A DNA stretch of 64,000 nt from Pseudomonas sp. B21_DOA (lineage in GTDB: Bacteria; Pseudomonadota; Gammaproteobacteria; Pseudomonadales; Pseudomonadaceae): NCBI GenBank assembly GCA_030544685.1, contig CP086683.1:5084001-5148000 (forward strand), in the 5' to 3' direction. The notes beneath the pieces are model-generated. The model did no database searches. It was given only the letters and a program-made list of their open reading frames with translations, and had not been told where the DNA came from. Made by a program: the position numbers and the translations under genes. Below are positions 1,638 to 64,000 of the stretch, in pieces (the stretch's first letter is position 1; each line of letters begins with the position of its first letter).

Positions 1638-2374
1638 ACGCGAGCATCACCGCACACAGCACCAGGAACCCGCAGAACAGCCCACGCAGAATTTTTCCGG
1701 CATGGCGTGGGCCACTTTCACGCCCCAACTGATGCTGAGCAGACCTCCGACCGCCAGAGGCAGGCCGATCATCCAATCGACTTCGTGGTGCACCGCGTAA
1801 GTCACCAGCGTCACCCGGTGCTCGGCAAGGCCAGCGCCAATGACAAGCCCTGAGCGACCACTTGCGTGGTGCCGAACAGGCTGGTCAGCACTGGCGTGGC
1901 GACCACTGCGCCGCCGACGCCGAACAAGCCGCCCATGGTTCCCGACGCGGCGCCGAGCACGCCCAGCCACGGCCACGAATAGCGCATCTCGGCAGTCGGC
2001 GCTGGGCGCGGACCGAACATCTTCAACAGGTTGTAGGCCGATAGCGCCACCAGAAAGGCGACAAAACCGATGCGCATGGTTTGCGCGTCGATGCCCACCG
2101 CCCAGATCGAACCAAGCCAGGCAAAGCAGAAACCCATCACTGCCAGCGGCAGCGCATGGCGCAACTCGATGCGATTGCGCTGGTGATAACGCCACAGCGC
2201 GAGCATCACGTTCGGTACCACCATCACCAACGCCGTGCCTTGGGCGATCTGCTGATCAAGCCCAAACCACACGCCAAGCAACGGAATCGCAATCAAGCCA
2301 CCGCCAATGCCAAAGATCCCGCCCAATGTGCCAAGGGCAGCGCCGAACAGCAGGTACAACAGAAAATCCATCAC
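1627..2374 (-). pseudogene. TauE/SafE (TSUP) anion permease, two frameshifts as sequenced
   Basis: This is a membrane permease of the TauE/SafE (TSUP) family, which moves small organo-sulfur or sulfite-like anions. The first 185 residues are intact and show the duplicated family motif: GTLGGIFGIGGGLIAIP near the N-terminus and GTMGGLFGVGGAVVATP in the second half. The frame then breaks at a GGG run (1814-1816, reverse strand) and again at an A-run (1692-1696). Adding one base at each restores a continuous 249-residue protein ending VMLAFKV. Both look like homopolymer undercalls. The start at 2374 faces the LysR gene at 2484. The substrate cannot be told from sequence. Confidence 0.8.
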
Positions 2375-2483
2375 AACGGTAATCCTCTAACGACAGGTGG
2401 CCAATGCTACGCATTCACGCCTAGCAGGGAAACGCACAGCAACGCACAATGGCTATGCCGATTCTGCACAAGCGTGGTTTCCC

Positions 2484-3440
2484 ATGAACCTCAATCAATT
2501 GACCGATCAGCTCGGTCTCTTTCTCGATGTGCTGGAGAGTGGCAGCTTTTCTGCCGCTTCGCGCCGTCATCCGCTGACACCTTCTGCCGTGGCGCGGCGC
2601 ATCGACAGCCTGGAAAGTGCCGTCGGCAGCCAGCTGTTCGTGCGTAGCACCCATGCCGTGCTACCGACTTCGGCCGGACTGGCCTTTGCCGAACGAGCGC
2701 GACGGATCATCGCCGAGTTGCAACTGGCACGCGCCGAGGCGGTGTCGTTGAGTAGCGCACCGGAAGGGCTAATCCGCATCGATGCGCCAGCAGCCTTCGG
2801 GCGGCGGCATCTGGCACCGGTGATTGCCGACTTTCTCTTGCTGTACCCTGGACTGGATGTGCAGATGCACCTGATCGACAGCTTCAGCGACATGGCCGGC
2901 AGCAGCCTGGGCAAGGTCGATCTGGTGCTGCGTACCGGGCAGTTGGCCGATTCGCGCCTGGTTGCCACGCCACTGGCGAGTATGGTCCGCGTCGCCTGCG
3001 CCAGCCCTGACTACCTCAAGCAGCGCGGCGTGCCCGAGTCCCCAGTGCAATTGAGCGAACACGACGGGCTCGACTGGGAAGGCCTTGCTCCGCCCTTCGC
3101 CTGGAAATTCGAAGTCGACGGGCAAATGCAACTGCACCGGCCATCGCGGGTGCGCCTGAGCGCCAACAATGCCGAAGCCCTGGCGTGTGGCGCGGCGGCG
3201 GGTCTGGGCGTCGCACACCTGCCGACCTGGCTGGCCAGCGACTACTTGCTGCGTGGCGAACTGGTGCCGCTGTTTTGTGAAAATGGCCTGCCGCCGCCGG
3301 AGTCCACCGGCATCTACGCGCTGCGCATGGAACAGCAGGTCCATTCGCGCAGTCGTTTGTTGCTGGAATACCTCAAAACCCGCTTCAGCCCGGTGCCGCC
3401 GTGGGATCTTGCGCTGCAACGACAATTCGCCCGGCACTGA
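2484..3440 (+). CDS. LysR-family transcriptional regulator
   Basis: A 318-residue LysR regulator: helix-turn-helix at residues ~3-62 (FSAASRRHPLTPSAVARRID) and a co-inducer domain of the CrgA/AaeR-like type (GLIRIDAPAAFGRRHLAPVI). The start MNLNQLTDQL fits the family; an in-frame ATG at 2397 would add 29 residues of low-quality sequence. It is divergent from the TauE/SafE permease, 110 bp away, so it is the obvious candidate to regulate that permease (inference from layout). The effector is not predictable. Confidence 0.85.
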   Translation: MNLNQLTDQLGLFLDVLESGSFSAASRRHPLTPSAVARRIDSLESAVGSQLFVRSTHAVLPTSAGLAFAERARRIIAELQLARAEAVSLSSAPEGLIRIDAPAAFGRRHLAPVIADFLLLYPGLDVQMHLIDSFSDMAGSSLGKVDLVLRTGQLADSRLVATPLASMVRVACASPDYLKQRGVPESPVQLSEHDGLDWEGLAPPFAWKFEVDGQMQLHRPSRVRLSANNAEALACGAAAGLGVAHLPTWLASDYLLRGELVPLFCENGLPPPESTGIYALRMEQQVHSRSRLLLEYLKTRFSPVPPWDLALQRQFARH

Positions 3441-3515
3441 CGCCGGGCATATTTATCTGGCGCATTAAAGATTCGAGCGCTAGATTAAAAAACGATCAAC
3501 GATCAAGGCTTTGAC

Positions 3516-3971
3516 ATGACTTCCGAACGCGACAACTGCGACGACCTGCTGCTCGACAATCAGGCATGCTTCGCCCTGCACTCGACCTCGCTGATGATGA
3601 CCAAGGTCTACAAGCCGCTGTTGCAGGCGCTGGGCCTGACCTATCCGCAATATCTGGCGATGATGGTGTTGTGGGAGAAGGACGGTCTGACTGTCGGAGA
3701 AATCAGCGCACGCCTGCTGACCGATCCGGGATCGCTGACGCCATTGCTCAAGCGTCTGGAAGCCGAAGGCCTGCTCAGCCGCACCCGCAGTCGTGAAGAT
3801 GAGCGAGTGGTGATTGTCGAACTGACCGCAGCAGGCCGCGCCTTGCGCGACAAGGCGCAGACCGTGCCGCAGTGCATTCTTGGCGCCAGTGGCTTCACCC
3901 TGGAACGTCTGCAGAAGTTGCAGGCCGAGCTGCAAGCGCTGCGCGGACATCTGCAAGACAGCCTGACCTGA
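3516..3971 (+). CDS. ohrR: OhrR, organic-peroxide-sensing MarR repressor
   Basis: The 151-residue protein is a MarR-family winged-helix regulator. It has the OhrR signature: a reactive cysteine near the N-terminus (Cys18 in NQACFALHS) and a second cysteine at position 120 (VPQCILG). This is the two-Cys layout of Xanthomonas-type OhrR, where peroxide forms a disulfide and releases DNA. The tyrosines that contact the reactive Cys are probably those in MTKVYKPLL and LTYPQYLAMM. AAGG lies 7 bases before the ATG. ohr follows at 4312 in the same direction, after a REP doublet, so the pair is the classic sensor/detoxifier unit. Confidence 0.9.
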   Translation: MTSERDNCDDLLLDNQACFALHSTSLMMTKVYKPLLQALGLTYPQYLAMMVLWEKDGLTVGEISARLLTDPGSLTPLLKRLEAEGLLSRTRSREDERVVIVELTAAGRALRDKAQTVPQCILGASGFTLERLQKLQAELQALRGHLQDSLT

Positions 3972-62166: not shown

Positions 62167-62791
62167 AAAGTGAAGTGATCGTCGTCGGTGCCGGCGGGCA
62201 CGCCAAGGTGTGTATCGAATTGCTGCGAGCCCAAGGCGATAGCGTCGCTTACTGCGTAGGTAATCCGGACAGTCCGGATACCTGCCTGGGGGTTCCCGTA
62301 CTTAAAAATGACGAACACCTCGCGGCGCTTCGCAATGATGGCTACGAAAAGGCATTCATCGCGATCGGCTCCAATTCGGTGCGAAACAAGCTGGCCGCAA
62401 AGGCGACCCAGCTGGGGTTTGGCCTGGTCAATGCGATCAGTCCGGCAGCAGTGGTATCACCTTCAGCTAATTTGGGGAGGGAATCGCCGTCATGGCCGGC
62501 GCCGTTATCAATGCCGAGGCGAAAATTTCGGACCTGTGCATCGTCAATACCGGCGCCACTATCGATCACGATTGCGTGATTGGCGAGGCGGTCCATATCG
62601 CTCCGCAATGCGCGCTGGCGGGCAATGTGCATGTGGGCAAGCTCAGCTTTATCGGTGTCGGCAGCAAAATCATCCCCGAGGTTCATATTGGTGAGTCGGT
62701 GATGGTAGGTGCCGGCAGCGTCGTCATTTCGAACATCGGGTCGGCAACTACAGTCGTAGGCGTGCCAGCCAAAGTTCTACACAAAATTTGA
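62163..62791 (+). pseudogene. NeuD/PerB-like sugar O/N-acetyltransferase, frameshifted as sequenced
   Basis: A 209-residue left-handed beta-helix acetyltransferase of the PglD/NeuD family after repair. The N-terminal Rossmann-like part is VIVVGAGGHAKVCIELLRAQG. The C-terminal hexapeptide repeats include VNTGATIDHDCVIGEAVHIAP, with the catalytic His. One extra G in a run (62474-62477) joins ANLGEGIAVMAGAVINAE. Next to the perosamine-synthase-like gene, it is the best candidate for a GDP-perosamine N-acetyltransferase (PerB). Confidence 0.82.
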
Positions 62792-62801
62792 AGGAACAAG
62801 C

Positions 62802-63904
62802 ATGAATCGTATTTCTGTTGCACAACCGAAGCTTGCCGGAAACGAACGTAAGTATGTGCTGGATTGCCTGGATACCAACTGGATTTCCTCGAACGGCAAA
62901 TACATCGGCGCCTTCGAAGAAAGCTTCGCAGCATTCTGCGGCGTCAAGCACGCGATCGCGACCAACAACGGCACCACTGCACTGCACCTGGCATTGGTCG
63001 TGCTCGACCTGCAACCGGGCGATGAAGTCATCATTCCGACAGTGACCTACATTGCCACCGCCAATGCCGTGCGCTACTGCGGAGCGACGCCTGTATTGGT
63101 GGACGTTTGCGCCGATACGATGAACATCGATCCGCAGACCATCGAAAGCAAGATCACCGCGAAGACCAAAGGCATCATCCCGGTGCACCTGTACGGTCAC
63201 CCTGCGCAAATGGATGTCGTCAACGAAATCGCCCGCAAACACAACCTGTGGGTGGTGGAAGACGCGGCCGAAGCCCATGGCGCCGAGGTCAAGGGCAGCA
63301 AGGTTGGCAGCCTCGGCACGTGCGCAACCTTCAGTTTTTTGGCAACAAGATCGTCACCACTGGTGAGGGCGGCATGATTACCACCAACGATGATGAGCTG
63401 GCGGCGAAACTGCGCCTGTTCCGTGGTCAGGGCATGGACCCGAAGCGTCGTTACTGGTTTCCAGTGGTCGGCTACAACTACCGCATGACCAACATTCAGG
63501 CAGCGATCGGTCTGGCGCAGATGGAAAACATTGATACTGCCCTGGCAGATCGTGATCGGCTCGCTGGCTGGTATAACGAAGCGCTGGCCGACCTGGCTGG
63601 CAAAATCGTGTTGCCGACCGAGGCCTCCTGGGCCAAACAGGTTTTCTGGATGTACAACATCTTCCTGAGCGATGGCGACGAGCACAAACGTGACGAAGTC
63701 ATGCAAAAGCTTGATGCCATGGGTATCGAAACCCGCCCGGTCTTCTACCCGATGCACGTGCTGCCACCGTACAAGGAGGACAGTACCTACCCTGTTGCAG
63801 ACTTGTGGTCGGGACGGGGCATCAATTTGCCGACGCATCAGGACCTGACTCAGGATGACATCATCAGAATTGCAGCCAGCCTGCGTGAGGTCCTGGCCGA
63901 CTGA
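62802..63904 (+). pseudogene. per: Perosamine-synthase-like aminotransferase, frameshifted as sequenced
   Basis: A 367-residue PLP-dependent aminotransferase after repair. N-terminus PKLAGNERKYVLDCLDTNWISSNGKYI, PLP lysine in FSFFGNKIVTTGEGGMI, and RYWFPVVGYNYRMTNIQAAIGLAQME. These match GDP-4-keto-6-deoxymannose 4-aminotransferases (Per/RfbE), 364-371 residues long. It draws on the Gmd product. The break is at a T-run (63335-63340). SD is AAGGAAC. Confidence 0.82.
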
Positions 63905-64000
63905 TGAAAATCGCCCTTTGCTCCACATTCGTGCCCTTCATCAGAGGGGCGGAAGGAATATCGTCGACTGGCTGGCCTCCACGCTGACGGCAGCCGGCCA
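63904..64000 (+). pseudogene. Start of a further glycosyltransferase (partial, frameshifted)
   Basis: ATG 63904 overlaps the per stop (TGATG). MKIALCSTFVPFIRG is a GT4-like opening. The frame breaks at a GGGG run (63945-63948); one extra G gives IRGGGRNIVDWLASTLTAAG, a typical glycosyltransferase N-terminus. The rest lies beyond the window. Confidence 0.6.

What the first reader, a model, noticed from the sequence alone, without database searches (positions are those of the whole stretch)
1692..63948. 26 single-base deletions in homopolymers break 20+ genes: a sequencing artefact signature
Every frame break I found is repaired by adding one base, never by removing one, and nearly all fall in runs of 3-6 identical bases (e.g. 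13271-13274, 23508-23511, 36633-36636, 46670-46673, 63335-63340). Genes hit include DAHP synthase, kdpA/B/E, wbpL, wzm and mltF, each of which regains family length after repair. Real decay would also give insertions, substitutions, stops and larger deletions.
Basis: partly seen in the sequence, partly recalled or inferred. Interest (0 to 1): 0.75.

Follow-up and report, generated by a model that had tools for sequence, protein, structure and literature searches.

The report
Homopolymer deletion errors in genome assembly
The 'broken' genes in this stretch are almost certainly intact in the living bacterium: the sequence drops one letter from runs of repeated letters, in sampled areas all around the genome and even in genes that cells need to live, so this is a sequencing error and not biology.

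Summary
The finding is right in substance. The window lies in a Pseudomonas genome (one 5.94 Mb contig). Against eight relatives, over 43,978 comparable bases, it has 21 single-base losses and 2 single-base gains of its own; each relative, as focal genome against the other seven, has 1-6 and 0-5. In 11 sampled areas of the genome there are 139 coding losses and 10 gains in 418 kb; the nearest relative has 7 and 8. The chance of loss climbs with run length: coding G/C runs 11/5003 at 3, 17/630 at 4, 20/70 at 5, 7/8 at 6, and broadly the same outside genes. Of 337 frames intact in both reference relatives, 95 are broken, including rpoB, rpoC, secY, dnaE, ftsI-type, murF, nusA, pyrG and glmM, while substitutions in them still fall mostly on third codon positions (0.817; intact 0.832). 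A living cell could not carry these breaks. Best reading: residual homopolymer errors of a consensus sequence, probably long-read-only, a published kind of error.

The parts
1647..2374 (-). TauE/SafE-family transporter gene, split by two single-base losses
   Evidence: frame fragments; 8/8 relatives at both places; intact 249-aa copy in L089 is PF01925
12491..13062 (+). PilZ-domain protein gene, one single-base loss
   Evidence: 8/8 relatives; intact 190-aa copy in L089, PF07238 at 26.4 bits
13191..14266 (+). DAHP synthase gene, one single-base loss near the 5' end
   Evidence: 8/8 relatives, alignments; NCBIfam PRK12755 and TIGR00034 on intact copy
15065..15208 (+). P14 small RNA, one single-base loss in a T run (noncoding example)
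   Evidence: Rfam RF01669 118.9 bits; 7/8 relatives
15626..16982 (-). L,D-transpeptidase gene, one single-base loss, by position in the N-terminal part
   Evidence: 8/8 relatives; YkuD domain on intact copy
22056..22496 (-). DoxX-family gene, one single-base loss
   Evidence: 7/7 relatives; PF07681 on intact copy
22603..24310 (-). MltF-like lytic transglycosylase gene, two single-base losses
   Evidence: 7/7 relatives at both; SLT domain; MltF model 168.8 bits, under its cut-off of 354
25236..26745 (+). methyl-accepting chemotaxis protein gene, one single-base loss inside and one at or before its start
   Evidence: 7/7 relatives at both; MCPsignal and HAMP on intact copy
27346..28155 (-). acyl-CoA thioesterase gene, one single-base loss near the 3' end
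   Evidence: 5/6 relatives; PF20789 and PF13622 on intact copy
30931..31612 (-). kdpE, one single-base loss
   Evidence: 8/8 relatives; 136 of 136 protein comparisons in the deletion sense; response-regulator domains on intact copy
35247..37335 (-). kdpB, split by two single-base losses
   Evidence: 8/8 relatives at both; Pfam pieces in two frames
37304..39009 (-). kdpA, one single-base loss close to the start
   Evidence: 8/8 relatives; KdpA domain nearly complete in the remaining frame
41871..43165 (-). beta-ketoacyl-ACP synthase gene, one single-base loss
   Evidence: 8/8 relatives; PRK06333 747.5 bits on intact copy
   Evidence: 3 of 3 protein comparisons, the best at 56% and 45% identity; PF00953 on relative
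55639..56788 (-). group 1 glycosyltransferase gene, two apparent single-base losses (protein evidence only)
   Evidence: 2 comparisons at each of two places; PF00534
60097..60878 (+). Wzm-like polysaccharide exporter permease, two apparent single-base losses (weak)
   Evidence: one comparison at each place; NF050109 299 bits, under its cut-off of 380; PF01061 on relative
62748..63928 (-). unassigned gene, one apparent single-base loss (weak)
   Evidence: 2 comparisons, the best at 41% and 23% identity; no Pfam match on the two frames

Best explanation
The sequence held for this Pseudomonas genome under-counts homopolymer runs. Base calling and consensus lost one base in a fraction of runs, and the fraction climbs steeply with run length, about one base earlier for G/C than for A/T. 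Shown here: the losses, their run-length dependence, their presence in all 11 areas sampled, their presence in essential genes, and unchanged codon-position bias in the 'broken' genes. Inferred: that the cell's DNA is intact at nearly all these places, and that the source is a long-read assembly without accurate-read polishing (nanopore or older PacBio; platform not determined).
For: (1) 139 coding -1 events against 10 +1 in 418,182 bases of G000; control relative G029, counted the same way, 7 against 8 in 419,286 (p = 3e-33 for the loss rate). In the 6-area count the more distant G030 has 15 and 18 in 260,943 coding bases, where G000 has 81 and 4 in 261,800. (2) Loss rate per run, coding G/C: k3 11/5003, k4 17/630, k5 20/70, k6 7/8; noncoding G/C: k4 8/119, k5 5/20, k6 1/1; coding A/T: k5 9/226, k6 20/63, k7 7/11; noncoding A/T: k5 1/61, k6 8/31, k7 2/5. 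Control (second relative): coding G/C k4 0/316, k5 1/31, k6 1/5; coding A/T k5 1/139, k6 0/35, k7 1/5; noncoding A/T k3 6/307, k5 2/33, k6 1/20. (3) 138 of 164 losses touch a run of 3 or more, against 15% of random places. (4) The rpoB open frame is 1227 aa in G000 and 1363 in 5 of 5 relatives, with one rpoB match in G000; dnaE is 780 against 1176-1202. (5) 95 of 337 conserved frames are broken, with 113 events of -1, 3 of +1, one +2 and one -2; named ones include rpoB, rpoC, secY, rplB, dnaE, an ftsI-type gene, murE, murF, pnp, nusA, pyrG and glmM. (6) Third-position share of substitutions: broken 0.817, downstream of the first break 0.831, intact 0.832. (7) Estimated completeness is 95.3%, against 99-100% for the 18 same-genus genomes. 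(8) Published long-read bacterial assemblies show the same kind of error (PMC12007338, PMC8011154 and PMC6325685; passages only).
Against: No reads were seen. The rate varies between areas (0.07 per coding kb around dnaA, 0.19 around rpoB, 0.28-0.50 in the other nine), unexplained. Noncoding 4-base G/C runs are hit more often than coding ones (8/119 against 17/630, p = 0.045), which alone would fit weak selection. 26 of 164 losses are not at a run of 3 or more as read in G000. Coding events of other sizes not divisible by three are also raised (11 against 2 in G029); of the 8 printed, four are -2 and look like two neighbouring single losses counted together, and the others are -14, -4, +2 and +2. 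Some essential-gene breaks lie within the first 10 codons (rplB, murE, the first of two in rpoB and in pnp), where a wrong start could mimic a break; those in rpoC, secY, dnaE, ftsI-type, murF, nusA, pyrG and glmM do not. At the relative's background rate (7 coding losses in 419 kb) about one of the window's coding losses may be real.
Confidence: 0.98

Rival explanations
1. Real genome decay: the strain is accumulating pseudogenes by small deletions.
For: Deletion bias is a known trend in bacterial decay (recalled). Frames are interrupted in the sequence held.
Against: Genes known as essential are hit (essentiality recalled; breaks). Codon-position bias is unchanged downstream of the breaks (0.831 against 0.832). 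113 of 118 frame events are net -1. Rates per run are broadly alike inside and outside genes.
Confidence: 0.005
2. A mismatch-repair-deficient hypermutator with real slippage in runs.
For: Slippage rises with run length, as seen.
Against: Slippage gives gains as well as losses and is strong in longer runs (recalled); here it is 139 to 10, with 7 of 8 coding G/C 6-runs shortened. Essential genes could not stay broken. Mismatch-repair genes were not examined.
Confidence: 0.005
3. Phase variation: some breaks in the polysaccharide region (46-64 kb) are real on/off switches in short runs.
For: Surface-polysaccharide genes are classic phase-variable genes (recalled). Breaks there rest on protein comparison only.
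Against: The same kind of event occurs in housekeeping genes in all 11 areas. Known switches use longer runs (recalled).
Confidence: 0.05
4. Programmed ribosomal frameshifting restores the frames.
For: Some breaks lie at runs of A or T.
Against: It would be needed in about 28% of conserved frames (95 of 337), at runs of any base, while the two reference relatives encode the same genes in one frame.
Confidence: 0.001

Closest known systems
Gene-fragmenting errors in long-read assemblies of small genomes (Kastor paper, PMC12007338)
   Same: Deletion errors tied to runs of 2-8, most at 4-5; fewer than 2,000 indel errors in the assembly Pss508; 23.3% pseudogenes before correction (passages read)
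   Different: There errors at A/T runs were about twice those at G/C runs; here G/C runs fail about one base earlier than A/T runs. Pss508 is by its name probably Pseudomonas syringae; the passages seen do not say so
Systematic errors of nanopore assemblies (Homopolish paper, PMC8011154)
   Same: Systematic errors are mainly indels in homopolymers that shift reading frames; in one isolate read polishing lowered insertions but raised deletions; excess pseudogenes remain (passages read)
   Different: Overall draft accuracy there was lower, with both insertions and deletions; here almost only losses are in excess

Membership tests
long-read homopolymer consensus error | single-base indels concentrated in homopolymers | tested here: met
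   138 of 164 at runs of 3 or more against 15% of random places
long-read homopolymer consensus error | error rate rises with run length, in coding and noncoding DNA alike | tested here: met
   one class (G/C, k=4) differs at p = 0.045, two others tested do not
long-read homopolymer consensus error | spread over the genome regardless of gene function | tested here: met
   all 11 areas sampled (about 455 kb compared); genes known as essential hit
long-read homopolymer consensus error | rare in relatives' assemblies | tested here: met
   8 relatives as focal genome: 1-6 losses each against 21
long-read homopolymer consensus error | accurate reads show the longer run | not testable with these tools
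   no reads held
long-read homopolymer consensus error | record made from long reads without accurate-read polishing | not testable with these tools
pseudogene decay | relaxed selection in broken genes | tested here: not met
   third-position share 0.817 against 0.832
mismatch-repair hypermutation | losses and gains both raised | tested here: not met
   losses 139 against 7, gains 10 against 8
phase variation | restricted to contingency genes | tested here: not met
   95 of 337 conserved frames

The most novel reading that the evidence does not exclude
Among the artefacts, one or a few breaks in the surface-polysaccharide genes (46-64 kb) are real and switch with run length, hidden by the error background.
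Probability: 0.05. Interest if true: 0.3.

Novelty: not a real feature. Interest (0 to 1): 0.12.

Why it matters
Pseudogene, gene-loss or split-gene claims drawn from this genome would be wrong for a large share of genes (95 of 337 conserved frames look broken). The run-length table is a simple reference-based check that can flag such genomes in a scan, and other findings from this genome should be read with it in mind.

Tried and rejected
One search demanded the identical missing base at the identical place and found only 4 losses. One search showed that this rule failed because neighbouring substitutions change which base looks missing, so the count was redone as net length change. One search was a first count on 6 areas (G000 81 coding losses, 4 gains, 8 other sizes; G030 15, 18, 7) and was superseded for G000 and G029.

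One search compared 163 G030 frames in 6 areas without requiring a third genome to be intact: G000 62 losses, 10 gains, 7 other events, 61 frames broken; G029 6, 12, 8 and 23 broken. That method therefore has a noise floor of about 23 frames, which I put down to gene ends and shadow frames. One search requires the frame to be intact in both relatives, which removes breaks from the relatives but not from G000; the symmetric control is. The 337 frames still hold some shadow frames (at least one among the 11 broken ones of the window area).

I suspected that errors grow with distance from the replication origin (lower read depth). Six areas hinted at it; eleven did not (Spearman 0.29, p = 0.39), so the idea is dropped.

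One search gave 44 break clusters. Of 14 with 7 or more comparisons, 12 are deletions (one of them 132 of 133) and two, at about 13.1 and 37.3 kb, are mixed; I take those as gene-end effects. Of the other 30, 11 are insertion-only, 4 mixed and 15 deletion-only (7 of these beyond 46 kb). I set the low-support ones below 46 kb aside, because DNA alignment covers that part, and kept the 7 beyond 46 kb as weak evidence.

In areas p3.01 and p4.00 the second relative is G033, and in p4.50 G033 plus G030, although the scripts label it G030. One search left out losses with poor flanks (164 kept; one search has 167). The stretches on either side of the window (L107, L108) were fetched but not analysed.
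Full report
What was claimed.

Where the window lies. It is G000:C1:5084001-5148000, in a single contig of 5,940,484 bases with an estimated completeness of 95.3%; the 18 same-genus genomes in the same listing have 99-100%. Rfam finds the Pseudomonas sRNA P14 at 15065-15208. The nearest named relative found is Pseudomonas sp. CFBP13508 (L009 = G029): 92.7-94.1% DNA identity in three aligned blocks of window 27.3-43.8 kb and 77% in a fourth, and 95-96% in window 1-20 kb. The names of the other close loci suggest the fluorescens group (grouping recalled). 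Seven more relatives (G030-G036) align with most of window 1-45.7 kb.

Is the pattern there? Yes. A first, over-strict count found only 4 losses. Counting net length changes that at least 4 relatives and 80% of the covering ones agree on, the window has 21 single-base losses, 2 single-base gains and one gain of two in 43,978 bases. Each of the 8 relatives, compared with the other 7 in the same way, has 1-6 losses and 0-5 gains. Protein comparison over the whole window (6,736 frames from fetched loci of other genomes) agrees where support is strong: of 14 clusters with at least 7 comparisons, 12 are of the deletion kind and 2 are mixed. Among 30 weaker clusters there are 11 insertion-only, 4 mixed and 15 deletion-only; beyond 46 kb all seven are of the deletion kind, on 1-3 comparisons each.

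Is it local? No. I compared 10 further areas of the same genome: five around genes for polymerase, replication, division and translation, one around the second polymerase III alpha gene, and four at arbitrary positions. Events shared against two relatives give, over all 11 areas, 139 coding losses, 10 coding gains and 11 coding events of other sizes not divisible by three in 418,182 bases, plus 28 losses and 9 gains in 36,547 noncoding bases. The relative G029, treated the same way, has 7, 8 and 2 in 419,286 coding bases, and 10 and 7 in 36,032 noncoding bases. Single-base gains are not in excess. Of the eight other-size coding events printed, four are -2 and look like two neighbouring single losses merged by the clustering. 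Area rates run from 0.07 to 0.50 per coding kb. Extrapolated from these 455 kb, the genome holds about 2,200 single-base losses.

Run-length law. For runs in G029 with matching 4-base flanks, the share one base shorter in G000 is, for coding G/C runs, 11/5003 at length 3, 17/630 at 4, 20/70 at 5 and 7/8 at 6; for coding A/T runs 1/757 at 4, 9/226 at 5, 20/63 at 6 and 7/11 at 7. Noncoding G/C runs give 8/119, 5/20 and 1/1 at lengths 4-6, noncoding A/T runs 1/61, 8/31 and 2/5 at 5-7. For the second relative the coding values are 0/316, 1/31 and 1/5 (G/C 4-6) and 1/139, 0/35 and 1/5 (A/T 5-7); its noncoding A/T runs give 6/307, 0/84, 2/33 and 1/20 at 3-6. Coding and noncoding rates in G000 do not differ for G/C 5 and A/T 6, but do for G/C 4 (p = 0.045). 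Of 164 losses, 138 touch a run of 3 or more, against 15% of 22,000 random places; of the 26 others, many printed contexts are a relative's 3-base run read as 2, or a loss beside a substitution.

Essential genes. The rpoB frame is 1227 aa in G000 and 1363 in each of 5 relatives, and G000 has a single rpoB match. dnaE is 780 aa against 1176-1202. Of 337 frames intact in both reference relatives, 95 are broken in G000, with 113 events of -1, 3 of +1, one of +2 and one of -2. Eighteen of the 95 were submitted for naming, chosen by me mostly for size and place near housekeeping genes: RNA polymerase beta and beta', SecY, ribosomal protein L2, DNA polymerase III alpha, an FtsI-type protein (under its model's cut-off), MurE, MurF, PNPase, NusA, CTP synthase, GlmM, pantothenate kinase, TruD, RsmI, a chemotaxis-receptor-like protein, an efflux permease, and one without a match. 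Breaks in L2, MurE and one of two each in RpoB and PNPase lie within the first 10 codons; the others named as essential lie deeper. dnaA, ftsZ and infB themselves are open at full length, as expected if losses are scattered by chance. That these genes are essential and single-copy is general knowledge, tested here for copy number only in rpoB. A cell without working RNA polymerase, replicase and translocon is not viable, so these losses are not in the cell.

Selection. In the broken frames 81.7% of 6,414 substitutions against G029 fall on third codon positions; downstream of the first break 83.1% of 4,418, and in intact frames 83.2% of 11,262. The frames are kept by selection as if unbroken. 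In-frame stop substitutions were not counted.

Mechanism. Long-read base callers estimate run length from a signal without steps inside the run, and the consensus settles on the shorter length when most reads do (established knowledge, recalled). The Kastor paper describes deletion errors tied to homopolymers of 2-8, most at 4-5, in a long-read assembly with 23.3% pseudogenes before correction (passages read). The Homopolish paper describes systematic nanopore errors as mainly homopolymer indels that shift frames (passages read). A comparison of MinION assembly methods found SNPs and indels over-represented at homopolymers (passages read). The match is close. The platform behind this genome was not determined.

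Verdict. The pattern is confirmed and the interpretation supported.

Noticed in passing
window 3997-4095 and 16702-16790: Elements of about 90 bases that match many places in the 8 related genomes searched (listing, capped), perhaps REP-type intergenic repeats (type recalled, not tested).
   Followed up: no
window 50289-51617 (+): A 442-aa frame joins hexapeptide-transferase repeats with an FdtA/WxcM-type domain, which suggests a 3-amino-3,6-dideoxy sugar in the strain's polysaccharide (inference).
   Followed up: no
G000:C1:3556777-3557543: The second DNA polymerase III alpha gene is split in two frames in G000 but in one frame in all 5 relatives searched: the same kind of break in another gene.
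   Followed up: partly
11 sampled areas of G000: The loss density differs between areas (0.07 per coding kb at dnaA, 0.46 in an area about 350 kb away); distance from the origin does not explain it.
   Followed up: partly
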